Assembly (NCBI GenBank): GCA_003989075.1
Contig: RXIX01000029.1
Span: 1-33,271, forward strand
Source: Candidatus Competibacteraceae bacterium
GTDB taxonomy: Bacteria > Pseudomonadota > Gammaproteobacteria > Competibacterales > Competibacteraceae
Direction of reading: 5' to 3'
Length of the DNA: 33,271 nt
The translations under genes and the position numbers were made by a program. This document shows, piece after piece, positions 19,793-33,271 of the stretch (the stretch's first letter is position 1; every line of letters starts with the position of its first letter). The notes under the pieces are model-generated. The model was given only the letters and a program-made list of their open reading frames with translations, was not told the origin of the DNA and searched no databases.

Positions 19793-19933
19793 TGGTGATT
19801 GGTTATAAATTTATGGTTAAAAAATTCTTTATTTGCATATAGGCGCAATGCTAAGGTGCAGCGCAAATCATCCAGTGCGGTTTCTGAGCGCGCTGGGATG
19901 CCTGCAACGGATGTCCAGTGAGAACCCAAGACG
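19793..19933 (+). promoter_or_regulatory. AT-rich leader of cysI, candidate CysB-type control region
   Basis: This 141-bp gap contains an unusually AT-rich stretch for this genome (19800-19840), including the palindrome ATAAATTTAT (19805-19814) and runs such as TTAAAAAATTC. Sulfite-reductase genes are commonly activated by the LysR-type regulator CysB, which binds AT-rich sites upstream. I see no confident -35/-10 pair. Assignment to CysB is inference from context only. Confidence 0.4.
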
Positions 19934-21631
19934 ATGTACCAGTACGACGCTTATGATCAGGCGCTCGTCGACGAGCGGGTAGCGCAGTACCGTGGCCAGG
20001 TGCAGCGCTACCTGGCGGGCGAGCTGAGCGATGACGAGTTCCGGCCGCTGCGCCTGATGAATGGCCTGTATCTGCAGCGTCACGCGCCGATGCTGCGGGT
20101 CGCCATTCCTTATGGTCTGCTGTCTTCGCGGCAGTTGCGCACCCTGGCGGCCATCGCCCGCCGCTATGACAAGGGCTATGGCCATTTCACCACCCGGCAG
20201 AATATCCAGTTCAACTGGCCGAAGCTGGAGGATACTCCGGACATCCTTGCCGAATTGGTGCGGGTCGAAATGCACGCTATCCAGACCAGCGGCAACTGCA
20301 TTCGCAATGTCACCGCTGACCATCTGGCCGGGGTCGCCGAGGATGAGATCGAGGATCCGCGCCTGTACTGCGAGATCATCCGCCAATGGTCGACCTTCCA
20401 CCCGGAATTCTCCTACCTGCCGCGCAAGTTCAAGATTGCCGTCACCGGTGCAGCCCATGATCGCGCCGCCGCGCAGGTGCATGACATCGGTCTGAATCTG
20501 TTGCGCGATGCCGAAGGTGGCATTGGCTTTCGGGTGCTGGTTGGCGGCGGATTGGGGCGCACGCCGATCATCGGTCAGGTGATCCGCGAATTCCTGCCCG
20601 AGCGCGACCTGCTCAGCTATCTGGAAGCCATTTTGCGCGTCTACAACCAGTACGGTCGCCGCGACAATCTGTACAAGGCGCGCATCAAGATCCTGGTCAA
20701 GGCGCTCGGCATCAACGCCTTCCGCGAACAGGTCGAAGCAGAGTGGATGCACATCAGGGATTCCGGTCTGGTGCTGGACGCCGCTGAAATCGATCGGGTG
20801 CGCGCTTTCTTCAGCCCACCGCCCTATGATCCGGGCGCCGCTGCCGATAACAGCTTTGCCGAACAGCTGGGTCGTGATCCGGCCTTTGCCACCTGGGTGC
20901 GCTACAACGTTGCCGGCCACAAGGTCGCCGGCTATCGCAACGTGTTCGTGGCCCTCAAGGCCCCAGCGGTGCCACCGGGCGATATTACCGCTGCGCAGAT
21001 GGACGCAGTTGCTGATCTTGCCGATCGCTACAGCTTCGGCCAGGTGCGCGCTACTCATCAGCAGAATCTGCTGCTGGCCGATGTGCGCCAGGCCGATCTT
21101 TATCCACTGTGGCAGGCGCTTCAGGAACAGGCGCTGGCGACGCCGGTGATTGGCACCCTGGCCGATATGATCTGCTGCCCGGGCCTGGACTTCTGCAGCT
21201 TGGCTAATGCCAGCTCGATCACCATTGCCCGGCAGATCAATGAGACCTTCGACCGGCTCGATTATCTCTATGACCTGGGTGCGATCCGCCTAAACATGTC
21301 CGGCTGCATGAATGCCTGCGGTCACCATCACGTTGGCCACATTGGCATTCTCGGCGTCGATAAGAAGGGCGAGGAGTGGTACCAGATCTCGCTGGGCGGC
21401 TCCTCGGAAAACGAGGCGACGCTGGGCGATATCCTCGGTCCCTCGGTGCCCAAAGCTGAGGTTGCCGCGACCCTGGAGCGCATCCTGCAGGTTTACCTGG
21501 CGCAACGCGAAGGCGACGAGCGCTTTATCGATACCCTGCGGCGGATTGGTCTGGAACCGTTCCGGGCTGGCGCCTATCGCGTGACGCCGCACAGCGAAGT
21601 GGAGGAGCGACGCCATGCGGCGCATCATTAA
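19934..21631 (+). CDS. cysI: sulfite reductase hemoprotein (nitrite/sulfite reductase family)
   Basis: The siroheme/4Fe-4S enzyme that reduces sulfite to sulfide for cysteine synthesis. The 565-residue protein has the two ferredoxin-like halves of the family, the early motif YGHFTTRQNIQFNWPKLED, and the cluster-binding cysteines C-x5-C (415 and 421, in CCPGLDFC) and C-x3-C (458 and 462, in SGCMNACGHHH). It is most like the Pseudomonas-type CysI found with a DUF934 partner rather than the enterobacterial CysIJ pair. Nitrite reduction cannot be fully excluded, but the DUF934 neighbour favours sulfite. The 3' end overlaps the next gene by 17 bp. Confidence 0.9.
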   Translation: MYQYDAYDQALVDERVAQYRGQVQRYLAGELSDDEFRPLRLMNGLYLQRHAPMLRVAIPYGLLSSRQLRTLAAIARRYDKGYGHFTTRQNIQFNWPKLEDTPDILAELVRVEMHAIQTSGNCIRNVTADHLAGVAEDEIEDPRLYCEIIRQWSTFHPEFSYLPRKFKIAVTGAAHDRAAAQVHDIGLNLLRDAEGGIGFRVLVGGGLGRTPIIGQVIREFLPERDLLSYLEAILRVYNQYGRRDNLYKARIKILVKALGINAFREQVEAEWMHIRDSGLVLDAAEIDRVRAFFSPPPYDPGAAADNSFAEQLGRDPAFATWVRYNVAGHKVAGYRNVFVALKAPAVPPGDITAAQMDAVADLADRYSFGQVRATHQQNLLLADVRQADLYPLWQALQEQALATPVIGTLADMICCPGLDFCSLANASSITIARQINETFDRLDYLYDLGAIRLNMSGCMNACGHHHVGHIGILGVDKKGEEWYQISLGGSSENEATLGDILGPSVPKAEVAATLERILQVYLAQREGDERFIDTLRRIGLEPFRAGAYRVTPHSEVEERRHAAHH

Positions 21632-22100
21632 GGACCGGCGGATCGTCGAGGACGTCTGGCAGCATCTGGCTGACGATGCCGAACTGGTAGAGGGCCCGGT
21701 GCTCGTATCGCTGGCCCGCTGGCGCCAGGACGAGGCCCTGCGCGCGCGTGCCGGAGCAGTAGGCGTGCGCCTGCCCAATACCCTGGATCTGGCCACGATT
21801 AGCGCTGACCTGCCGCGCTGGGCGCTGGTGGCGCTGGAATTTCCCAAGTTCGCCGATGGTCGCGCCTATTCGCAGGCCCGGCTGCTGCGCGAGCGTCATG
21901 GCTTTCGCGGTGAAATCCGCGCGGTGGGTGATGTGCTGCGCGATCAACTGTTTTTCATGGCGCGCAGCGGTTTCGACGCCTTCGAACTGCGTGCCGATCG
22001 CAGCCTGGAAGATGCGCTGCAGGCATTCACCGAGTTCAGCGACAGCTATCAGCCGGCGGTTGACCAGCCGCTGCCCCTGTATCGACGCCGGTCGCGCTGA
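21615..22100 (+). CDS. DUF934 protein, probable sulfite-reduction partner
   Basis: A 161-residue cytoplasmic protein of the DUF934 family, which is nearly always encoded directly after Pseudomonas-type cysI and is annotated as an oxidoreductase probably involved in sulfite reduction. Recognisable family stretches are WALVALEFPKFADGRAYSQA and FFMARSGFDAFELRAD. There are no redox cysteines, so an electron-carrier role is not supported by the sequence; a structural or assembly role is possible. The ATG lies inside the cysI 3' end, implying translational coupling. Confidence 0.85.
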   Translation: MRRIIKDRRIVEDVWQHLADDAELVEGPVLVSLARWRQDEALRARAGAVGVRLPNTLDLATISADLPRWALVALEFPKFADGRAYSQARLLRERHGFRGEIRAVGDVLRDQLFFMARSGFDAFELRADRSLEDALQAFTEFSDSYQPAVDQPLPLYRRRSR

Positions 22101-22103
22101 GCA

Positions 22104-22139
22104 GCGGCGCCCGCACCAGGCCTCATGACCGGGCGCCGC
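22104..22139. terminator. GC-rich hairpin between convergent DUF934 and pppA genes
   Basis: GCGGCGCCCG (22104-22113) and CGGGCGCCGC (22130-22139) form a perfect 10-bp stem with a 16-base loop. There is no U tract on either side. Its position between two convergent stop codons suggests a shared terminator or a transcript-end stabiliser. Confidence 0.5.
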
Positions 22140-22161
22140 AATCCATGCGGCACCGGTTGGC

Positions 22162-22980
22162 CTACTGCATGTACCAGTCTGGCGGAATCGGATTAGCCAG
22201 CGTCTGGCCACCCGCATCCCCGTTGCCATCAGCCAGTGGGGTAGCGTTCACATTCACCACCACCGTAGTGACGTTGTCACTGGCATCGCGCATCAGCGCC
22301 AGATGGATGAAGGCCTTGACCGCTTCCTGGCAGTTGTGGCGGCTGTTGGCCAGCAGACGGGCGATCTCCTCGTCGCTGACGGTCTTGTTGAGGCCGTCGC
22401 TGCACAGCAGGAACATATCGCCGGTCTGCAGCGGATACAACGCCTCGTCGATGCGCAGTTCATCGGTCGAACCGACCGCACGGGTAATGACGTTGGCCAG
22501 CGGATGGCGATGCGCATCCTCGGCGGCAATCAGACCCTGATCGACCAGATCCTGGACATGGCTGTGATCGCGGGTCATCTGCTGCAACTGCCCATCGCGC
22601 AGGCGATAAATGCGGCTGTCACCCACCCACAGGCAGGCGCACTGTGTGTCATAAGTCAGCAGCACCACGACCGTGCTGCCGATAGTGCGGTGCTGATAGC
22701 GGTGCGCCGATTCCTCGCGCAGGCGCTGGTTGACGTTTTGCAGGCAACTACGCACCGAGATCAGGAAATCGTTCCAGTCGCTCGGCGGCGGAATCTGCTG
22801 CAGACTCTCGATCACCATCTGGCTGGCCACATCACCGGCCTCGTGCCCACCCATGCCATCGGCAACTGCCCACAGCCCCAGTTCGGGCATGACCAGGCAG
22901 GCATCCTCGTTGATGGCTCGTACCATGCCGACATGGCTGCGCCCGGCCGATGACCATTGAAAAGGGGGTTTTTCACTCAT
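22162..22980 (-). CDS. pppA: PP2C-type Ser/Thr phosphatase, T6SS regulator PppA
   Basis: A 272-residue PPM/PP2C protein phosphatase. The metal-binding motifs are in order: NED (24-26), VADGMGGHEAG (39-49), GDSRIYRLR (120-128), CSDGLNKTV (193-201) and DNVTTVVV (235-242). In T6SS clusters PppA opposes the kinase PpkA by dephosphorylating the FHA protein (TagH here), and so turns secretion off. No PpkA gene is in the window. The tagF stop and the pppA ATG are two bases apart, and the ribosome site GAGGAGT lies within the end of tagF, so the two are likely coupled. It is the last gene of the minus-strand T6SS arm. Confidence 0.93.
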   Translation of the reverse strand: MSEKPPFQWSSAGRSHVGMVRAINEDACLVMPELGLWAVADGMGGHEAGDVASQMVIESLQQIPPPSDWNDFLISVRSCLQNVNQRLREESAHRYQHRTIGSTVVVLLTYDTQCACLWVGDSRIYRLRDGQLQQMTRDHSHVQDLVDQGLIAAEDAHRHPLANVITRAVGSTDELRIDEALYPLQTGDMFLLCSDGLNKTVSDEEIARLLANSRHNCQEAVKAFIHLALMRDASDNVTTVVVNVNATPLADGNGDAGGQTLANPIPPDWYMQ

Positions 22981-22982
22981 GA

Positions 22983-23771
22983 TTACTCCTCGGCGGCGGC
23001 AGTGGTGGCGCGCTCGCTAGATGGCGGGTCGATGCGGACAAGCGGTTTCTCCTCCCAGCCGGCCTGACGCCAGTCGCCAGACAGCAACGCTGCAAAGCCG
23101 CTGACCGGCGGCAGGCCGTCGCAGACCAGCAGGCAGCGGGTAATACGGTCCGATCCCTCGGTCCACCAGAGACTGGGTTGTGGAAAACTGCGTCGCAGCA
23201 GATAGGCGGCCAGCAGCGGCGACTGGGATGCCGCAACCAGTGATTCATCGTACAGGGGGCAGTACCAGGCAGCGCCGGGTCTATCAGTCGCGTCCGGGCC
23301 GGCCATCAGCGGGCTGCCCAGGGCGGCCACCTGCTGCTCGAATTCGTCCAGGGCCAGATCGTCGCGATCCAGACCGAGCAGCGCCAGGGATTCGGCACGC
23401 TCAAACCAGTCCACGGCGCTGGTTGGCAGGGTTAGCAGGGGCCGGTCCGGTGCCAGCGGCGCGGCAATCACCAGCGGGTAATAGCGGCCGACCCGGTCCA
23501 CGCTCGGCATCAGCACCCCGGCATAGGCGCGCGGCCCACACACCCCTGCGCCGAGCGCGAAACGCCAGATCGGACTGGTGCAGTAGCATTCCCGCCAGGC
23601 GCCGCCCAGTTGCTGGCGGCTGCAGGCGATGGCGTTTTGCAGCCAGGCATCCCAGGGATCGAGAAAGGCGCGTGGCAAATGGCGGGCGATGAAGTCGCCC
23701 CGGCTAGGCAGCTTGCCGAAGAAACCGGTCGGACCGGTCGCGGGCGTGCTGCTTACAGTTGCTCCGGGCAC
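22983..23771 (-). CDS. tagF: T6SS-associated protein TagF
   Basis: TagF is a cytoplasmic negative regulator of T6SS assembly in Pseudomonas and related systems. The protein begins with the family signature GFFGKLPSRGDFIARHLP (about 17-34) and continues through YYPLVIAAPL, SLWWTEGSDR and FAALLSGDW. I chose GTG 23771, giving 262 residues, because GGAGGG lies 6 bases before it on the minus strand. The frame remains open for 81 codons upstream, but that stretch overlaps tssM and looks like shadow sequence. The first 19 bases overlap the tssM end. No phosphatase domain is fused; PppA is encoded separately next door. Confidence 0.9.
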   Translation of the reverse strand: MPGATVSSTPATGPTGFFGKLPSRGDFIARHLPRAFLDPWDAWLQNAIACSRQQLGGAWRECYCTSPIWRFALGAGVCGPRAYAGVLMPSVDRVGRYYPLVIAAPLAPDRPLLTLPTSAVDWFERAESLALLGLDRDDLALDEFEQQVAALGSPLMAGPDATDRPGAAWYCPLYDESLVAASQSPLLAAYLLRRSFPQPSLWWTEGSDRITRCLLVCDGLPPVSGFAALLSGDWRQAGWEEKPLVRIDPPSSERATTAAAEE

Positions 23772-26700
23772 CGGAAGCCCTCCAGTTCGCGCAGGCGGAA
23801 TGGATTGAAAGTGCCGCTGGTGCGCAGTTCGTAGCTGCCCTGACGACCGCCGAACTGAAAGACCACGCGGAAGCGGCCGGCGCCGGTGGGTTGTACCTGC
23901 GCCTGGTCGAGCAGGCGGAACCAGGCCCAGGGACCGCTTTCGCTGAGCTGTGCCGGACCCCCCGCCACCGGGGGTTGGATGTCGATATGGGCTTCGCCCC
24001 GCGCGCCGGGCCATTGTAAGTCAGCACTGCGCGCCGGCTGGCCGACGGTGTAGGCGAAGGTCTGGCCGTCGATGCCGATGGTGAACTGGCTGATGCCGCC
24101 GCTGAATTCGATTGGTGTCAGTTGAAACCGGATCGCCGGAGCCGTACTGCCCCCCGCGAACAAAGCATCGCGGATTGTCGCCGCGCGCTGGAAGGTCTGC
24201 AGGGCTTCCGGGCTGATGCTCTGATCGGCGCCGCTCGGGCCACGCCAGCGCCAGGCGCCTGCCGTGATCTCGACATGGGGTTTGAGATATTGCTGAAAAA
24301 AGCGGTCCATCAGGCCATTGACGCCAAAGAAGCGGCCGAAGGCATCCAGGGTGGCATCCGGGGGACCAGCGGCAGGACGCGCGGCGGCCGCTCCATTGTC
24401 CTGACCGACCCATTGAATACTGTTGACCGGTACGGTATTGGCCGCGCCGCTGGCGGGTCCGGCGCCGCTCCACTGGATTGCGCTGCGCGCGAGCGGATAG
24501 CGGCCCTGCAGGTTGTCCTGGAAGAAAGTGGCGATGCGCGCGGCCTTCCATTGCGCATTAAGGCGGTCGCGCAGGCTGCGCACGGCGTCGGCACTGTCGC
24601 GGGCGAGCTGGTCAAGCAGGGTGTTGAACGGCGGTGGCTTGCGGCTGGCATCGACCTGCAGCTGATTGATGACGCTGTCGAGCTGATCCTTGAGGGTTTG
24701 CGGCACGCTGCCGTCGGTGCTGGACTGACGGGCGCGGGCGAGCGCATTCATGTGCCCGTACAGGTCGTTGATCGTGGACAGGGTTTTATCGAGTACGGGA
24801 ATGGCGCCCTCGGCACCCTGGGTTTCGCGGCGATACTGGGCGCTGAAATCGAGAAAGCGCCCTTCCAGAGTGCAGGGCTGCAGCGCAGTGGCGGGCGCGC
24901 TGGGTGCAAGAATGTCGCCGACGCGCTTGTCGAGTGGCGTGTCGAGACTGGCTGCCTTGCCGGGTTCCGCCGGTGCTGGCGGTTTGTCGAGCGCGGTTTC
25001 GCGGCCGACGGTTTCGATCAGGCCGCGCAGCGGCGAGGCGGGTGCCGACAGCACCTGCAGGATGTCCAGCGCCGTTTCCAGGGTATCGAAGGGCTTGATG
25101 CGCACATCGTCCAGCAGTCCCTGCCACTGCTGCAGAAAATCGCCCAGATAGAGCCGGCAGACGCTGTCGGCAATGCGCTGGCGCTCGGCGGGGCTGGCGG
25201 ATACCTGCTGCGCCGTGCCCAGGATCCAGCTCTCATCGGCCAGTCGGTCGATCAGCTTCGGGCTTTCGACGAGAAAAAACTGGTAATAGCCCTTGTAGGT
25301 GTACAGGCCGGGCACACCGCTGTTGAGCGGCTGGCCGCTTTTGCGCGCGAACACCCGCGGCGTGTCGGGGCCGGCCGCCAGGGTCAGGCCAATCTCGACC
25401 GGCGTGCCCGCGCTGCGCTGCAGTTGCTGCAGGTGCTGGTAGATACGCTGCGCCAGCGGCATCTGGTTGAGCAGGGCGCGGCTGTTCTGGATCAGGGCGC
25501 TGTCCAGGGCGATCGGCGATTGCAGCGGTGCCTGTTCCAGCAGGGCGTCGAGATGCGCGGCGAGCTGTTCGCGCTGTTCGCGGGTGGTGCTGGCAGGCAG
25601 ATTGGCCTGCCATTCGCGCAGCATCCAATCACGCACCGTCGCCGCATCGAAGCGCGTTGGGTCGTCGAACATCAGATAGGCGCGCAGGGTATCGTACAAC
25701 TGGCTGGGATTGGCGGTGTTCTGGCGCAGGCGTTCTTCCATGCGCAGCACGATGCGCGGCAGCAGCGCCCGCGTCAGCAGCCGCTCATACAGCGCCCGCG
25801 CTTCGCCACCGAGCTTGTCGCCCTGATACAAGCCAAAGCCCATCAGCCAGGGCGTGCCGGCATCGCGATCGGCATAGCCACCGGGAATGGTGCGGGCCGC
25901 GTCGAGCAGGGCCAGGGTCGCAGCCGGGTCGGTCTGGTCGGGTGAAAGCGCTGTAATCTGCTGCTCGACCTGTTGCCGCTGCTTTTGCACCGCCTGCACA
26001 TACAGCTCGTTGCGGGCGTAGCTGGTCAGCCACAGCACCGCCGCCAGCACGGTAATCAGCACCGCGATAGCATAGGCACCGCGCTGCATCCAGGCCCGCC
26101 AGCGTTCCACGCGCAGATTGGCGCCAGCGATCTGCGCTTCCGGGAAGATGACATCGCGCAGCAGCCGGGTAATGAAATAGCTGCGGCCCTTGCCGGAAAA
26201 GGCGCCCAGCGCCTGTCGGCTCAGGCCAAAGGTGCTGGCCAGCGAACTCATCAGCCGATCGATCGGCGTCCCTTCCTGGGTGCCGCTGGTGAAATACACC
26301 CCGCGCAGTAGCACCCGTTCCTCGTAGCGGCTGGGCCGGAACACCTCGTGCAGGAAGCGGTCGGCGATCTGGCGCAGCGAGCCGAACTGCTGCGGCAGGC
26401 TGTAGATCAGGTCGCGGCGCTGCGGGTCGCGTTCATTTTGCAGGCGCTCGACCAGCCGGTCATTGAGGCGCTGCTGCAGCAGATCGAACTCGGCAGTGAA
26501 GCGCTCGACTACGCCTTGCGGATCGCTCGGATCGTCCATCGGCAGAGTCAGGCCCCAGACCTGCGCCCGCTCTTCCTGACCAAGATCGCTGAAAAACTCG
26601 ATGAACCCGGCGATCAGGTCGGCCTTGGTGAACAGTACATAGATCGGGAAGCGGATGCCGAAGTGTTCGTGCAGCTCCTGAATGCGCTGCTTGATGGCCA

Positions 26701-27502
26701 GTGCCTGGGCGCTGCGCTCTTCCTCGCGCTGCTGCATCAGGTCGGCGAGGCTGATGGCTACGAAGGCGCCGTTGATCGGCCGGCGTTTGCGGTGCTTTTT
26801 CAGCAGGTCGAGGAAGCCGCGCCAGGCCGCCCGATCGACCTCCTCGTGGCTGTCCTGGGTGGTGTAGCGGCCGGCGGTGTCGAGCAGCACGGCTTCGTCG
26901 GTGAACCACCAGTCGCAGTTGCGGGTGCCGCCGACACCGCGCACCTTGCCGGCGCCGACTGGGAAGCGCAGCCCGGAGTTGATCAGCGCAGTGGTTTTGC
27001 CTGAGCCGGGCGGGCCAATGATGATGTACCAGGGCAACTGGTAAAGGTACTGGCCGCGACCGCTCTTGCCGCCGAGTCGGGCCTTCTTGAGTACGCCCAG
27101 CGCATCATCCAGACCCTGTTTGAGAGTGGCGATTTCCTCCGCCGAGGCGGCTTCCTGCTCCTGGCGACGCTGCTGCTGCTCGCGGGGACTCGGACCGGCT
27201 TCGCCCGCGCCCGCGCCCGCACCCGCACCCGGGCTACCCATGCCGCCCACGCCCTGGCCGGCCAGATCGGCGAGCATGTCGCGATTCCGGCGCAGGGTGT
27301 CGATGTAGTAGTAGAGCTGGTAGAGGGCATACATGCCGCCGACGGTCATGATGCTGAATACCCGGCCCAGATCGGAGGCGAGCGGCGTTTCCCCGGCGAC
27401 CGCGACCAGGGGCCCGAGGTACCAGATCAGGGCGGCAACCGCCAGCAGGCCGGTGATGCCGATGAACCAGCGGCTTTTGAAGAAGCTGAGAATCGTGTTC
27501 AT
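23753..27502 (-). CDS. tssM: T6SS membrane-complex protein TssM (IcmF)
   Basis: TssM is the large inner-membrane subunit whose periplasmic part spans to the outer-membrane lipoprotein TssJ. The 1249-residue protein has two N-terminal membrane helices (about 12-37 and 48-67), then a Gly/Ala-rich linker (about 82-104) and a GTPase-like cytoplasmic domain with Walker A GPPGSGKT (163-170) and DTAGRY (208-213). A third membrane helix (about GAYAIAVLITVLAAVLWL) leads into a long periplasmic region containing the IcmF-related and C-terminal TssJ-binding domains. The ATG at 27502 is 10 bp from the tssL stop. The frame is open 39 codons upstream, but those overlap tssL. Confidence 0.96.
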   Translation of the reverse strand: MNTILSFFKSRWFIGITGLLAVAALIWYLGPLVAVAGETPLASDLGRVFSIMTVGGMYALYQLYYYIDTLRRNRDMLADLAGQGVGGMGSPGAGAGAGAGEAGPSPREQQQRRQEQEAASAEEIATLKQGLDDALGVLKKARLGGKSGRGQYLYQLPWYIIIGPPGSGKTTALINSGLRFPVGAGKVRGVGGTRNCDWWFTDEAVLLDTAGRYTTQDSHEEVDRAAWRGFLDLLKKHRKRRPINGAFVAISLADLMQQREEERSAQALAIKQRIQELHEHFGIRFPIYVLFTKADLIAGFIEFFSDLGQEERAQVWGLTLPMDDPSDPQGVVERFTAEFDLLQQRLNDRLVERLQNERDPQRRDLIYSLPQQFGSLRQIADRFLHEVFRPSRYEERVLLRGVYFTSGTQEGTPIDRLMSSLASTFGLSRQALGAFSGKGRSYFITRLLRDVIFPEAQIAGANLRVERWRAWMQRGAYAIAVLITVLAAVLWLTSYARNELYVQAVQKQRQQVEQQITALSPDQTDPAATLALLDAARTIPGGYADRDAGTPWLMGFGLYQGDKLGGEARALYERLLTRALLPRIVLRMEERLRQNTANPSQLYDTLRAYLMFDDPTRFDAATVRDWMLREWQANLPASTTREQREQLAAHLDALLEQAPLQSPIALDSALIQNSRALLNQMPLAQRIYQHLQQLQRSAGTPVEIGLTLAAGPDTPRVFARKSGQPLNSGVPGLYTYKGYYQFFLVESPKLIDRLADESWILGTAQQVSASPAERQRIADSVCRLYLGDFLQQWQGLLDDVRIKPFDTLETALDILQVLSAPASPLRGLIETVGRETALDKPPAPAEPGKAASLDTPLDKRVGDILAPSAPATALQPCTLEGRFLDFSAQYRRETQGAEGAIPVLDKTLSTINDLYGHMNALARARQSSTDGSVPQTLKDQLDSVINQLQVDASRKPPPFNTLLDQLARDSADAVRSLRDRLNAQWKAARIATFFQDNLQGRYPLARSAIQWSGAGPASGAANTVPVNSIQWVGQDNGAAAARPAAGPPDATLDAFGRFFGVNGLMDRFFQQYLKPHVEITAGAWRWRGPSGADQSISPEALQTFQRAATIRDALFAGGSTAPAIRFQLTPIEFSGGISQFTIGIDGQTFAYTVGQPARSADLQWPGARGEAHIDIQPPVAGGPAQLSESGPWAWFRLLDQAQVQPTGAGRFRVVFQFGGRQGSYELRTSGTFNPFRLRELEGFRCPEQL
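27202..27230. repeat. hexanucleotide-type simple repeat in tssM
   Basis: A run of CGCCCG/CACCCG units on the plus strand encodes the alternating Gly-Ala linker (GAGAGAGAG) of TssM on the minus strand. Such runs are prone to slippage in multiples of six, which would keep frame. Confidence 0.6.
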
Positions 27503-27512
27503 GGCCCCGGCC

Positions 27513-28883
27513 CTAGTTGATCCGCGCCAGCAGGATGATGTCGACGCGCCGGTTGAGGGCGCGATTGGGTGCGGTGTCGTTGGACGCGACCGGCTCGGTA
27601 TCGGCGCGGCCCTCGCCAATGAAGCGGCCGGGCTGGTTGCTGACTGCGGCCAGCAGTTTGACGACGCTGTCAGCGCGGGCCTTGGACAGATGCCAGTTGG
27701 ACGGGAATTGCAGGGTGCGGATCGGCACGCTGTCCGAGTGGCCGGTCACCAGTACCCGGCCCTGCACCGTGTTCAGCTCCTTGCCAATCTGCGCCAGCAG
27801 CGGTGTGAAGGCCGGTTTGATATTGGCGCTGCCGGAATCGAACAGGCCATCGCCGCGAATGCGCACCGTGGTCTTGTCGGCATCTTCGAGTACATCGACC
27901 AGGCCCTGGCGGATCTGCGGGTCGAGGAAGGCGCGCAGGTCGCGGGTGACACGGCTGAGATCGGCGGTGGCGCGTGGCTTGGGTGCTGGCGCAGCCACGG
28001 CAACACCGGCGCGGCGGGCCATGGCTACGGTCTCGCCCCGCACGCCGCTGAGCGCGGTCAGCGCTGGATCGGATGCGCTATTGAGCAGCCAGTTGAACAG
28101 GGCGTAGGCGATCAGCAGCAGCGCCGCAGCCACCGCCGCGACCACCCACAGCGGTACATAGCGGATCAGCGGATTGTGCTGCTCGACCACGCCGCGCCAG
28201 TGCGGTGACAGCTCGCGCTCGAACTCGCCGCGTGCGGTGCGGATGGCGTTGTAGACTCGCTCACGCTGCTCGTCGAGGCGGCTGCGGCCATTTTCCAGCA
28301 GCCGGTAGCGGCCCTGAAAGCCGAAGGACAGGCACAGGTAGAGCAATTCCAGTAGGTGCAGGTTCTTGCGTGGATCGGGCAACAGCGCATCCTGCAGTTC
28401 AAAGACTTTTTCGCCGCCCCAGGTTTCGTTGTGGAAGGTGATCAGCAGGCTGTTCTCGCTCCAGTCGCTGGCCCGGCCCCAGGGTGTGTTCAACACCACC
28501 TCATCGAGCAGGGTGCACAGGATGTAGCGGGCGCGGAATACGGTTTTCTCCGCTATGCCCTGCTCGCGGGCACGGGCGGTGAAGGTCTTGATCTCCTCGA
28601 TCATGCGCAGGCGCAAGCGCTCCGGGTCGGGATGCGAGGAGGTGTTCTTCAGGCGCATGACCAGCCCGAGCAGTGGCGCAGCGGCGCTTTCCAGCGGATT
28701 AAGGCCCGGGCCGGTAGCAACAAGGGGTACGGCTTCGGCAGCCAGACCAGGTGATGGCCCGGGGGAGGGTTCGGGTGGTGATGGCATGGCCGGGGGCGCA
28801 CGCCGGCCACCCGGCGCCGGACGGATCACGGTGCGGTCGCTGTCGTCACCGGCGTCGGTCGCAAAAGGGTCGTCGATGGTCAC
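27513..28883 (-). CDS. tssL: T6SS protein TssL (DotU) with C-terminal OmpA peptidoglycan-binding domain
   Basis: TssL partners TssM in the inner membrane. The 456-residue protein has an acidic and then proline-rich N-terminal tail (about 1-55), a DotU cytoplasmic domain (about 68-235, with ILCTLLDEVVLNTPWG and SLLITFHNETWGGEKVFE), one membrane helix (about 243-267), and a periplasmic OmpA-like domain (about 330-456, with GHSDSVPIRTLQFPSNWHLS and NRALNRRVDIILLARIN). This is the peptidoglycan-anchored (evolved) TssL type. Start is GTG 28883 with GGAG 9 bases before it. It lies 14 bp from the tssK stop. Confidence 0.94.
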   Translation of the reverse strand: MTIDDPFATDAGDDSDRTVIRPAPGGRRAPPAMPSPPEPSPGPSPGLAAEAVPLVATGPGLNPLESAAAPLLGLVMRLKNTSSHPDPERLRLRMIEEIKTFTARAREQGIAEKTVFRARYILCTLLDEVVLNTPWGRASDWSENSLLITFHNETWGGEKVFELQDALLPDPRKNLHLLELLYLCLSFGFQGRYRLLENGRSRLDEQRERVYNAIRTARGEFERELSPHWRGVVEQHNPLIRYVPLWVVAAVAAALLLIAYALFNWLLNSASDPALTALSGVRGETVAMARRAGVAVAAPAPKPRATADLSRVTRDLRAFLDPQIRQGLVDVLEDADKTTVRIRGDGLFDSGSANIKPAFTPLLAQIGKELNTVQGRVLVTGHSDSVPIRTLQFPSNWHLSKARADSVVKLLAAVSNQPGRFIGEGRADTEPVASNDTAPNRALNRRVDIILLARIN

Positions 28884-28897
28884 GGTGCCTTACTCCG

Positions 28898-30250
28898 TTA
28901 TTCCTTGATGGCCCAGAAGGCCATGTCCAGCCCCGGAAACTCGCCGCCGACGTGGAAGGCAAAACCGCCGGAACTGAGCAACTGTTTCCAGAACTCGCTG
29001 CTGCGGTCGAGCCGGAAGTAGATGAAATCGGCCCGATAGGGGATCTCACGCGGTGCGACCGGCAGGGCACTGACGCCGATGCCGGGCAGATGGTGGTTGA
29101 CGAACTGGGCGATGCGCTCGACCGGACCGATCTTCACCTGGGTCGGGAAGCGGGCACGCAGCAGATCGGCGGCCATGTCGGCGCGCACCGCCAGGATGAA
29201 GGTGGCCTTGGTAAGCAGCGGGCGCTCGCGGTCGGTGATGATCGCCACGCGGATGCCGTACTGGCGTTCCTCGATGGGAATCTGGATCGCTGCCTGTTCC
29301 TCGACCAGGCTGAGCGAACGGCGCAGTTCGGTCATCAGCACGTCGAAACTGCGCTGCAGGTCGTCGTGATCATAGGCCGGGAACGGTGGCGGCCGGCGCC
29401 GGGTCTTGCCGGTGAAGGTGGCCATCTCGCCGGCCAGTTGCAACGCCGCCTGGTAAAAGTCCGCCGGGTGCAGGCCGGGCATGATCGTCAGATGGGCGAA
29501 CAGCGGTTCAAAGCGGTTGATGGCCTGCAGGCGCAGGAACTGGGCGATATCGACCCCGGCACCGCGTGCCGTGCCGGCGCCACTGACCCGTTCCGCCAAG
29601 GCATCGCCGCGCTGGTGCAGCAGACCCAGTACCTCGGTCACGAAACCGTTGAGTACCGGCACGCCGCGACAATCCAGGCAGGGCGGCAGATAGGCCGGGT
29701 CCAGTACCACAGTCTGATCCGGTCGCTTTTCCTGCACCCGGGCAATGCCGATGCAGGTGTGCTCGCTGGAGTCCTTGCTGTCCAGGAACAGCCGCAGGCG
29801 CGGCTCGCCGATCTCGACGAAGGCGCTGTTGTTGGCGGTGTCGATGTTGTTGTCGCGCACCTCGCTGGCTGTGACCCGATAGCGCGCGGCGGTGTCCTGA
29901 CGCTCGCCGCGCTCGACCTCAGCCATGCCCGAACGCCGCAGCGGCAGGGCCAGTAGCACCCGGGTATCGCGGACACTGGCCTCGATGTCCAGTGGCGGCG
30001 GCGGTGGATCATGGTCGGGGATGTTGAATGGCGTGCCGTCCGGCAGCAGGCCGCGTGCCGTGGTGATGGCGACCTTGCCCAGGGCCAGGGCTTCGCGATC
30101 CAGCACCAGCTCAGCCACGCCCCAGGCATAGGGGCGCAGCAGGGTGCAGGATTGCCGGACCAGGGCTTCGATGTAGCGGTCCTGCTGCTGGAAATGCTGC
30201 GGGCGCAGGAACATGCCCTCGGACCACACGACCTTGCTATACCAGCTCAT
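28898..30250 (-). CDS. tssK: T6SS baseplate protein TssK
   Basis: TssK is the trimeric adaptor that joins the baseplate to the membrane complex. The 450-residue protein begins with the strongly conserved VVWSEGMFLRPQHFQQQDRY and ends with FAFHVGGEFPGLDMAFWAIKE; other family stretches include IPIEERQYGIRVAIITDR and LPGIGVSALPVAPREIPYR. It is encoded between tagH and tssL. The usual gene before tssK in this cluster type, tssJ, is not present: 124 bp separate the tagH stop from this ATG. A direct repeat of GCATCACTCG (30255-30264 and 30266-30275, plus strand) lies just upstream, and the ribosome site is poor. Confidence 0.95.
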   Translation of the reverse strand: MSWYSKVVWSEGMFLRPQHFQQQDRYIEALVRQSCTLLRPYAWGVAELVLDREALALGKVAITTARGLLPDGTPFNIPDHDPPPPPLDIEASVRDTRVLLALPLRRSGMAEVERGERQDTAARYRVTASEVRDNNIDTANNSAFVEIGEPRLRLFLDSKDSSEHTCIGIARVQEKRPDQTVVLDPAYLPPCLDCRGVPVLNGFVTEVLGLLHQRGDALAERVSGAGTARGAGVDIAQFLRLQAINRFEPLFAHLTIMPGLHPADFYQAALQLAGEMATFTGKTRRRPPPFPAYDHDDLQRSFDVLMTELRRSLSLVEEQAAIQIPIEERQYGIRVAIITDRERPLLTKATFILAVRADMAADLLRARFPTQVKIGPVERIAQFVNHHLPGIGVSALPVAPREIPYRADFIYFRLDRSSEFWKQLLSSGGFAFHVGGEFPGLDMAFWAIKE

Positions 30251-30374: not shown

Positions 30375-31907
30375 TCAGCGACTCCGTTGATGTTCTTCGT
30401 AGGCCCGGGCGAAGGCATCGCCGAACAGTTTATTGAAATCATCCTCGGCTTCGCGGGCGATGGAGGCGTACTCGGCCTTGAACAGATCCCAGTACTTGGC
30501 CTTGCGATTCAGCGGCAGGATGCTGTCAAGCAGACCGTGTTCGAGGCGGGTTTCCAGGTTTTCCGGGTCAAAACGCTCCAGCAGGCGGGCCAAAGCGGCC
30601 TGGATGCCGGCCATGACTGCCAGTTGATGCGCCTTGATATCGGTAAAGCCCTCGCGCACCGCCTGTACGGGCGCCATGTAGGCGCTTTGCTGGCCGAGCA
30701 GCAGCAGGGTCATGACTTCCTCGGCGCGCAGCGGTGGCTGGCCGGGCGGCGTCTTGAGCGGGTTGTTTTCGATCGGGCCAATGGCCGTGCGGTCCAGGCG
30801 GAATTCGCCCTTGACATCGCCGCGCGCCAGCAGGATTTCCATCAGGCCCTGCACGGTCTCGCGGAAGATCGCGCCCAGGCGGATCATGAGCTCCGGCAAC
30901 TGCTCGGCGGTGGTATGCAGGTGCGGCAGACCGGCGCCGTCGCAGAAGGCGTATAGCAGGGCTGCGTCCAGCACTGGCCTGGCAGCCGGTGGCGGTTCGA
31001 GTGGTGCGGGAGCGGGCGTGGGGCGGCTGACCGGTGGCGGTTCGATCGGTGCGGGAGCGGGCGTGGGGCGGCTGACCGGTGGCGCGACGTTCCACCAGTC
31101 ATCGGGAATGAGCGCGTCGGCGACTGGCGCGGGTTCCGGCTCCGGCAGCGGTATGGGTACAGGCACGGGTGTTGGCGCGGGTTCCGGCCTGGTGACGGGT
31201 TTTGGTTCAGGCTTTGGCGTCGGTACCGGGCCGATTTGGGAGACCAGCACGGGCGGTTCAAAGGCAGCCCGATCGGGACTGAGCAGATCGGCGGAGGGTT
31301 CGGTAATGGCAGCGCCCAGCGGTGCCTTGTCGCGCGGCCGCAGACCCAGGCTGTCCTCCTGTCCGCTGGATTCACCGCTTTCCTCGATCTCCTCGGTCTC
31401 CTCGGGATTATCGGTCAGGAGGTCGGAGAAGGAAGGGCGGGCGATATCGACCGCTGGCACCACCGGTGGCGTGATCTCGGGAATGGCGATATCCGGCATT
31501 GCCCCGCTCGCCGGCCTGGGCATGACATCGGTAACTGGCCCTTCTTCTTCAGTCGCTTGCGGTGCGACCGGGACGGCGCTGGCTGCGGTGGTGATGCTGA
31601 CAGCGATTTCATACTCGCCGAGGATGAAACGATCACCATCATGGAGCGCAACCGTCTGCTCGCGGGTGATGCGTTCGCTGGAATCGTTGAGAAAAGTGCC
31701 GTTGGTGCTGGTATCGGTCAGGAAATAGCGGCCATCCTGATGATGAACGGTACAGTGCTTGCTTGACAGAATCCGCTCGGGATCCTGCAGCACCCAGTCA
31801 TTGGATGGTGCGCGACCAATGCTGATCGAGCCCCGCTCCAGGGTGCGGGTGACTTCCTGGCCCGGCGAGAGCCTCTGAAAACTGGTGATGGTCAAGGTCA
31901 GGGGCAT
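30375..31907 (-). CDS. tagH: T6SS FHA-domain protein TagH (Fha-type)
   Basis: An FHA scaffold that, when phosphorylated by PpkA, promotes T6SS assembly; PppA reverses this. The 510-residue protein has the FHA domain at about 20-95 with GR (31-32), SSKH (48-51) and TSTNGT (66-71), the residues used for phosphothreonine recognition. A long acidic and Pro-rich linker (about 115-315) includes two copies of a PPVSRPTPAPAP-type unit. The C-terminal domain (about 320-510, including YAFCDGAGLPHL and ILPLNRKAKYWDLFKAEY) is typical of type VI FHA proteins. I chose ATG 31907 because FHA sequence starts directly after; a TTG start 11 codons upstream is possible. It is the first gene of the minus-strand arm. 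Confidence 0.93.
   Translation of the reverse strand: MPLTLTITSFQRLSPGQEVTRTLERGSISIGRAPSNDWVLQDPERILSSKHCTVHHQDGRYFLTDTSTNGTFLNDSSERITREQTVALHDGDRFILGEYEIAVSITTAASAVPVAPQATEEEGPVTDVMPRPASGAMPDIAIPEITPPVVPAVDIARPSFSDLLTDNPEETEEIEESGESSGQEDSLGLRPRDKAPLGAAITEPSADLLSPDRAAFEPPVLVSQIGPVPTPKPEPKPVTRPEPAPTPVPVPIPLPEPEPAPVADALIPDDWWNVAPPVSRPTPAPAPIEPPPVSRPTPAPAPLEPPPAARPVLDAALLYAFCDGAGLPHLHTTAEQLPELMIRLGAIFRETVQGLMEILLARGDVKGEFRLDRTAIGPIENNPLKTPPGQPPLRAEEVMTLLLLGQQSAYMAPVQAVREGFTDIKAHQLAVMAGIQAALARLLERFDPENLETRLEHGLLDSILPLNRKAKYWDLFKAEYASIAREAEDDFNKLFGDAFARAYEEHQRSR
30988..31077. repeat. two 45-bp tandem repeats in tagH linker
   Basis: Units 30988-31032 and 31033-31077 differ at two adjacent bases (GAG TGG versus GAT CGG, plus strand). 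They encode two 15-residue Pro/Ala-rich units of the TagH linker on the minus strand. Near identity suggests a recent duplication that varies linker length. Confidence 0.88.
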
Positions 31908-31974
31908 GGCGCGATGTCCGTGGGCAGGATGCCGCTGCAACTATCCGGGCGGGAGAGACTGGATGGATCCAAAT

Positions 31975-31993: not shown

Positions 31994-32044
31994 GATTTTG
32001 TAATGCGCAGTCTATACCGCGCGAACAGCTTGCGCCAAGCAGGC

Positions 32045-32050
32045 TATACT
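32045..32050 (+). promoter_or_regulatory. candidate -10 element for tssA arm
   Basis: TATACT differs from TATAAT at one position. No good -35 hexamer lies 16-18 bp upstream, which would fit an activated promoter. The Fur-type site begins six bases after it, covering the expected transcription start. Confidence 0.4.
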
Positions 32051-32055
32051 GAATC

Positions 32056-32070
32056 TGATAATGATTCTCA
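32056..32070. promoter_or_regulatory. Fur box between tagH and tssA
   Basis: TGATAATGATTCTCA matches the 7-1-7 core of the Fur consensus (TGATAATnATTATCA) in all but one defined position. It lies 45 bp upstream of the tssA ATG and just downstream of TATACT, the place where a repressor would block transcription start. Fur control of T6SS promoters is known in some enteric pathogens. Use here is inferred. Confidence 0.65.
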
Positions 32071-32115
32071 AGTGATCATGTCCTATGGTCAATGACCGGA
32101 TGAGGCCTGCGAGCG

Positions 32116-33180
32116 ATGAGTGTAATTGACGTTGAAGAGCTGCTCGGTGCCGTGACCGCTGCAGCGCCCTGCGGTGAGGATCTTGAATACGATCCGGCCT
32201 TTGCGGAAATGGAGACGCTGGCACAGGAAACCCCGGAACGCCAGTACGGCGACACCATTATTCCCGCCGAACCGCCCGACTGGCGTGCGGTGCGCAAGGC
32301 GTCGCTGACCCTGTTCGAGCGCACCCGTGATCTGCGGGTGGCGGTGCTGCTGTCCCGTGCGCTGCTGCAGACCGATGGCCTGACCGGGTTCAACGATGGC
32401 CTGGCGGTAGTCGAGGGCCTGGTCGAGCGCTACTGGGAGACGGTCTACCCGCTGCTCGATCCGGACGATGACAACGATCCGACCTTGCGCATCAACATCA
32501 TCGTGGCCTTGTGCGATGCTGAAACCACATTGCGCAGCCTGCGCGAAGCGCCGCTGGTCAGTTCGCGGGCGCTGGGACGCTTCAGCCTGCGCGATGTGCA
32601 GATTGCCGCTGGCCTGCTAGCGGCGGTGGCCAGCGAGGGCGAGGAGCTGCCGACTGCGGCGCGCATCGACGGCGCTTTTCAGGATGCGCCACTGGAGGAT
32701 CTGCAGGCGACCGCCGCCGTGGTGGCCGAGGCCATGGAGCGGGTCACGCACATCGAAGCGCTGCTCACCGATCAGGTGGGTGTGACTCAGGCGCCGGACA
32801 TGAGCGCGCTGCGGACGATGCTGCGCGATATCCTGCAGGTGCTGAGTGATCAGTTGCAGCGGCGGGGCAGTGGCCTGAGCGCTGCAGCGGCCGAGGTGGC
32901 CGGTGAGGAGGCGGTGGCTGGCCCGGGGGGGAATGGCGGGATGCAGCGGCTGGTGGTTGGCGAGATCACCAGCCGCGAGGATGCCATGCGCATGCTGGAC
33001 CGGATTTGTGAGTACTTCGAGCGCTACGAGCCGTCCAGCCCGGTACCATTCCTGTTGAAACGTGCTAAAAAACTAGTGACCAAGGACTTCATGGAGATCC
33101 TGAATGATCTGGCGCCCGGCGGCACCGAACAGGCTCACTTGATCTTTGGCCTGCGCGGTGAAGAGAGCAGTGGGTACTGA
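32116..33180 (+). CDS. tssA: T6SS protein TssA (ImpA N-terminal domain)
   Basis: TssA caps or primes baseplate and sheath assembly. The 354-residue protein has the ImpA N-terminal domain (about 8-130: PCGEDLEYDPAFAEME, PPDWRAVRKASLTLFERTRD, ERYWETVYPLLDPDDDNDPT). The C-terminal end has SPVPFLLKRAKKLVTKDFME and GGTEQAHLIFGLRGEESSG, typical of the shorter TssA class, as in the Pseudomonas H1 system. GAGG at 32102-32105 precedes the ATG. It is the first gene of the plus-strand arm, divergent from tagH, and tssB follows after 59 bp. Confidence 0.94.
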   Translation: MSVIDVEELLGAVTAAAPCGEDLEYDPAFAEMETLAQETPERQYGDTIIPAEPPDWRAVRKASLTLFERTRDLRVAVLLSRALLQTDGLTGFNDGLAVVEGLVERYWETVYPLLDPDDDNDPTLRINIIVALCDAETTLRSLREAPLVSSRALGRFSLRDVQIAAGLLAAVASEGEELPTAARIDGAFQDAPLEDLQATAAVVAEAMERVTHIEALLTDQVGVTQAPDMSALRTMLRDILQVLSDQLQRRGSGLSAAAAEVAGEEAVAGPGGNGGMQRLVVGEITSREDAMRMLDRICEYFERYEPSSPVPFLLKRAKKLVTKDFMEILNDLAPGGTEQAHLIFGLRGEESSGY

Positions 33181-33239: not shown

Positions 33240-33271
33240 ATGGCGATGAGCAGTCAGAAATTTATTGCCCG
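33240..33271 (+). CDS. tssB: T6SS sheath protein TssB, 5' end only (window ends)
   Basis: Only the first ten codons are in the window: MAMSSQKFIA, plus two bases of the next codon. SSQKFIA matches the conserved TssB (VipA) start, and position after tssA agrees. TssB and TssC form the contractile sheath. GAGAGAGG at 33222-33229 is a suitable ribosome site. The second ATG (33246) is an alternative start. Confidence 0.8.
   Translation, partial: MAMSSQKFIA

What the first reader, a model, noticed from the sequence alone, without database searches (positions are those of the whole stretch)
32045..32115. Near-perfect Fur box over the tssA-arm start site
TGATAATGATTCTCA fits the Fur 7-1-7 core with one mismatch, six bases after a TATACT element and 45 bp before tssA. 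This predicts that the sheath/baseplate arm of the T6SS is repressed when iron is plentiful.
Basis: partly seen in the sequence, partly recalled or inferred. Interest (0 to 1): 0.6.

Follow-up and report, generated by a model that had tools for sequence, protein, structure and literature searches.

The report
Iron-repressor site at T6SS tssA promoter
In an uncultured sludge-type bacterium (Competibacteraceae family), the promoter for half of its toxin-injection machine (type VI secretion) has gained what looks like a genuine binding site for the iron-sensing repressor Fur, which none of its relatives share; this is a new example of a known kind of control rather than a new mechanism.

Summary
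In detail: TGATAATGATTCTCA lies at 32056-32070, starts 6 bp after TATACT and ends 45 bp before tssA. The Fur reading is well supported, but no binding or iron response was tested. A Fur consensus built only from other genomes of the family, upstream of an iron-type ABC transporter, is TGAGAATNANTATCA. This 3.4-Mb genome has two exact matches: the tssA site and its own copy of that transporter promoter. Of the two one-mismatch sites, one is the feoAB promoter and the other lies inside a gene. A true Fur is encoded (NCBIfam equivalog, 202.7 bits, cut-off 146). Two caveats. The bases flanking the core are poor, so the site probably takes one Fur dimer and may be weak. The site is absent from tssA promoters of all 36 other family genomes with tssA; it lies in roughly 25-30 extra bases between the conserved TATACT and the leader, so iron control here looks recently gained. 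The predicted effect is repression of tssA-tssB in high iron, with the divergent fha arm not directly blocked. Fur-repressed T6SSs are known (EAEC sci1, P. aeruginosa H2), so this is a new member of a known kind.

The parts
32056..32070 (+). Fur box core TGATAATGATTCTCA; the reverse strand TGAGAATCATTATCA matches the family Fur consensus TGAGAATNANTATCA exactly
32051..32078 (+). roughly 25-30 bases absent from relatives, holding the Fur box, between TATACT and the leader (edges uncertain)
   Evidence: TATACT-to-ATG gap 65 nt here, 33-42 nt in 23 of 25 relatives measured
32045..32050 (+). TATACT, probable -10 of the tssA promoter, conserved in most of the family
32009..32019 (.). AGTCTATACCG, the most conserved promoter element in the family; on the minus strand TATAGA could be the -10 of fha
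   Evidence: conservation; promoter role inferred
32033..32040 (.). CGCCAAGC, conserved; minus strand TTGGCG could be the fha -35 (16 bp from TATAGA) or part of an activator site
   Evidence: conservation; role inferred
32116..33180 (+). tssA (TIGR03363, ImpA_N)
33240..33271 (+). start of tssB (MAMSSQKFIA), cut by the contig end
   Evidence: tssB (T6SS_VipA) follows tssA in relative L025
30375..31940 (-). fha/tagH, first gene of the divergent arm; the mechanically called start at 31940 (TTG) is probably upstream of the true ATG near 31907
22162..30250 (-). rest of the divergent arm: tssK, tssL, tssM, tagF, PP2C-type phosphatase pppA (H1-type layout)

Best explanation
The site is a genuine single-dimer Fur operator laid over the transcription start of tssA. 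When iron is sufficient, Fe-Fur binds 32056-32070, just after the -10, and blocks RNA polymerase, so tssA-tssB and the genes behind them are repressed; when iron is scarce they are expressed. The divergent fha-tssK-tssL-tssM arm has its putative promoter on the far side and would not be directly blocked. Iron control was gained in this lineage by new bases between the conserved -10 and the leader. Shown here: the sequence, its genome-wide rank, the fur gene, and its absence from relatives. Inferred: binding, repression, the start site, and the operon extent beyond tssB.
For: The family Fur consensus was learned from 23 orthologous iron-transporter-type promoters in other genomes. The genome has exactly two perfect matches to it, tssA and its own fbpA-like promoter. 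One of two one-mismatch sites is about 25 bp upstream of feoA-feoB; the other is inside a UPF0114 gene. The 2-mismatch sites that were checked overlap open reading frames. Fur is an NCBIfam equivalog, distinct from a Zur-like paralogue, and it aligns with solved Fur proteins over its length. In other family genomes the same one-mismatch core recurs 8 times, mostly at ferritin-like, iron-SBP, DUF2325 and flavodoxin-fold genes. It matches the E. coli 19-bp box at 14 of 19; EAEC sci1 fur1, shown to bind Fur, matches at 13 of 19 (PMC3145626).
Against: The flanking bases do not fit: with flanks the site scores below all 23 training sites (17.7 against a minimum of 18.3). None of 38 tssA upstream regions from 36 other genomes has it. 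TATACT has no recognisable -35, so the start site is a guess. The genus has one held genome, so purifying selection on the box cannot be tested.
Confidence: 0.76

Rival explanations
1. Chance resemblance: the lineage-specific bases happen to spell a Fur core, and Fur does not regulate this promoter.
For: The generic-consensus mismatch series in the genome looks like chance; flanks do not fit; no conservation in relatives.
Against: Core score reached 0 times in 398 kb and expected 0.006-0.11 times in the whole genome; it falls over the start region of a promoter, and the only other equal site is an iron-transporter-type promoter.
Confidence: 0.15
2. Fur binds, but weakly or with another outcome: a low-occupancy site, a start-site roadblock with little effect, or activation rather than repression.
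For: Only one 7-1-7 unit, with poor flanks; Fur is reported to activate the T6SS in Aeromonas hydrophila (title of PMC9944043) and to be needed for it in Klebsiella (PMC10482370).
Against: A site overlapping the start region is the classic repressor position, as at sci1.
Confidence: 0.07
3. Fur-Dam epigenetic switch as in EAEC sci1: a GATC at 32074-32077 next to the box is methylated in competition with Fur.
For: A GATC starts 4 bp after the end of the box.
Against: No D12-class (Dam-type) methylase in the genome, although the same search finds it in E. coli; the GATC is outside the core.
Confidence: 0.02

Closest known systems
EAEC sci1 T6SS promoter, Fur-repressed (Brunet et al. 2011, PMC3145626)
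   Same: Fur box over the -10/start region of a T6SS operon; similar match to the 19-bp box (14/19 here, 13/19 for fur1)
   Different: sci1 has two boxes and three GATC sites with a Dam switch; here one box and no Dam-type methylase found; different T6SS layout
P. aeruginosa H2-T6SS, Fur-regulated (Sana et al. 2012, as cited in PMC10482370 and PMC3795662)
   Same: gammaproteobacterial T6SS under iron repression through promoter Fur boxes
   Different: the present cluster has the H1-type layout (fha, tagF, pppA, divergent tssA); for H1 the role of iron is described as little known (PMC12133291)
Salmonella SPI-6 clpV, Edwardsiella evp, Cupriavidus necator T6SS-1 (reviewed in PMC10482370)
   Same: Fur repression of T6SS genes
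   Different: other genes and lineages; reported from experiments there, predicted here

Membership tests
Fur-regulated promoter | 7-1-7 Fur core at or near promoter elements | tested here: met
   exact match to the family consensus on the minus strand, 6 bp after the probable -10
Fur-regulated promoter | site ranks with known iron targets of the same genome | tested here: met
   tied first with the fbpA-like promoter, ahead of feoAB
Fur-regulated promoter | extended 19-21 bp box, two overlapping units | tested here: not met
   flanks mismatch; 17.7 bits against 18.3-36.6 in training sites. The 15-bp 7-1-7 unit is itself a described Fur recognition unit, present twice in the 19-bp box (PMC3050691), so this lowers the expected strength rather than excluding a site
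Fur-regulated promoter | fur gene in the genome | tested here: met
   NCBIfam PRK09462 202.7 bits, cut-off 146; function itself not tested
Fur-regulated promoter | conservation across relatives (supporting, not strictly defining) | tested here: not met
   0 of 38 tssA upstream regions in 36 genomes; same-genus genomes not available
Fur-regulated promoter | Fur binding and iron response | not testable with these tools
   needs EMSA/footprint and reporter assays
sci1-type Fur-Dam switch | GATC within the Fur box and a Dam methylase | tested here: not met
   GATC outside the core; no PF02086 match

The most novel reading that the evidence does not exclude
A lineage of glycogen-accumulating sludge bacteria rewired an old, conserved H1-type T6SS promoter to iron by acquiring a single Fur operator between the -10 and the leader, so that the tail/sheath arm alone becomes iron-controlled while the membrane-complex arm stays on its ancestral control.
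Probability: 0.5. Interest if true: 0.5.

Novelty: new member of a known kind. Interest (0 to 1): 0.4.

Why it matters
If true, iron supply would set when this bacterium arms its T6SS. Competibacteraceae live in phosphorus-removal sludge, where iron salts are often dosed (general knowledge), so the link could matter in practice. It would also be a clear case of a Fur site gained de novo in a conserved T6SS promoter, with about 36 sister genomes as before-the-gain controls. The role of iron in H1-type systems is described as poorly known (PMC12133291).

Tried and rejected
Generic consensus counts alone were rejected as evidence, since 0:1:6:66 is a chance-like series. Dam switch: no D12 methylase. 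Zur instead of Fur: the second Fur-family protein is Zur-like and, by reading its neighbours, sits beside znuA- and znuC-like genes; its motif was not modelled. Wider taxonomy: the order search added only one genome, without tssA. Plasmid search for the same promoter: no match. Papers on T6SS in Competibacter: none found.

Full report
What is there. The window is contig C29 of a 3.4-Mb genome, G000. Its family relatives include records titled Candidatus Contendobacter and Candidatus Competibacteraceae, so it belongs to the Competibacteraceae; its genus has a single held genome. The T6SS locus has an H1-type layout. fha/tagH, tssK, tssL, tssM, tagF and a PP2C phosphatase run leftwards, and tssA, then the start of tssB, run rightwards. 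tssB follows tssA in a relative (L025). TGATAATGATTCTCA is at 32056-32070, between TATACT (32045-32050) and the tssA ATG (32116).

Is it more than chance? Against the generic 7-1-7 palindrome it is the genome's only site with up to one mismatch. The series 0, 1, 6, 66 sites for 0, 1, 2, 3 mismatches is, however, about what random sequence gives, so that alone proves little. A better yardstick was built. One 2-mismatch site in the genome lies 65 bp upstream of an ABC substrate-binding protein gene of the ferric-iron type (called fbpA-like here; Pfam SBP_bac_6/8; ligand not proven). Orthologues of that gene in the other family genomes nearly all carry the same box. The 23 sites from other genomes give the consensus AAATGAGAATNANTATCATTT.

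Result of the yardstick. The tssA site read on the minus strand is TGAGAATCATTATCA, an exact match to the 15-base core. A genome-wide pattern search finds only two exact matches: the tssA site and the genome's own fbpA-like promoter. Of two one-mismatch sites, one precedes feoA-feoB and the other is inside a UPF0114 gene. The 2-mismatch sites that were checked overlap open reading frames. The core scores 26.3 bits against 25.8 for the genome's own iron-transporter-type site and 18.0 for the best of 398 kb of the same genome. The chance expectation is 0.006-0.11 per genome, depending on base composition.

Weak points. Real Fur sites in this family extend into AAA...TTT flanks. The tssA site has TC...AG there, and its 19-bp score (17.7) falls below all 23 training sites. 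It therefore probably offers one 7-1-7 unit for one Fur dimer (inference). Against the E. coli 19-bp box it matches at 14 of 19; fur1 of EAEC sci1 matches at 13 of 19 and binds Fur (PMC3145626).

Regulator. The genome has a Fur above the NCBIfam equivalog cut-off (202.7 against 146) and a separate Zur-like protein next to zinc-transporter-like genes (by reading). The Fur aligns along its length with solved Fur structures.

Evolution. tssA upstream regions from 36 other genomes (38 copies; three of them short because the contig ends) were examined, and none has a comparable core; the best scored 14.1 bits. What is conserved is the promoter block AGTCTATACCG ... CGCCAAGC ... GCTATACT, with the two TATAC elements 32 bp apart here and 31-33 bp apart in most relatives. 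From TATACT (or its counterpart) to ATG there are 65 bases here but 33-42 in 23 of 25 relatives where it could be measured. The two exceptions, L044 and L058, have extra bases or an assembly gap nearer the start codon, and G021 also has a longer leader without a box. So the Fur core sits in bases that are extra in this lineage.

Mechanism proposed. Fe-Fur on 32056-32070 would cover the expected start site of tssA and block polymerase; low iron would release tssA-tssB and what follows. The conserved minus-strand pair TTGGCG / TATAGA (32038-32033 and 32016-32011) is a plausible fha promoter. The box lies upstream of it, so the fha arm would not be directly blocked. This asymmetry is inferred; no transcript start is known.

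Place among known systems. Fur repression of T6SS is established in EAEC sci1, P. aeruginosa, Salmonella, Edwardsiella and Cupriavidus (PMC10482370). A Dam switch as in sci1 is unlikely here because no D12 methylase was found. For H1-type systems the role of iron is described as little known (PMC12133291). The finding is a well-supported predicted new member of a known kind, with a neat evolutionary setting.

Noticed in passing
L062, L071, L077 (position 1501 in each): A DUF2325 protein gene of unknown function has a strong Fur box about 32-35 bp before its start in three genera of the family; it looks like an unrecognised iron- or oxidative-stress gene.
   Followed up: partly
window 32009-32050: A deeply conserved divergent T6SS promoter block with two TATAC elements 31-33 bp apart and CGCCAAGC between them; TATACT has no recognisable -35, which suggests an unknown activator.
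   Followed up: partly
L118 1501-1519 (G000 C73): Fur box upstream of feoA-feoB in the same genome.
   Followed up: yes
L061 1501-1515: TGATAATTATTCTCA upstream of dnaN in G001, possibly a chance match in AT-rich DNA.
   Followed up: no
window 19868-21058 and 21525-22229 (- strand): Open reading frames beside the T6SS arm without a convincing Pfam match; not analysed further.
   Followed up: no
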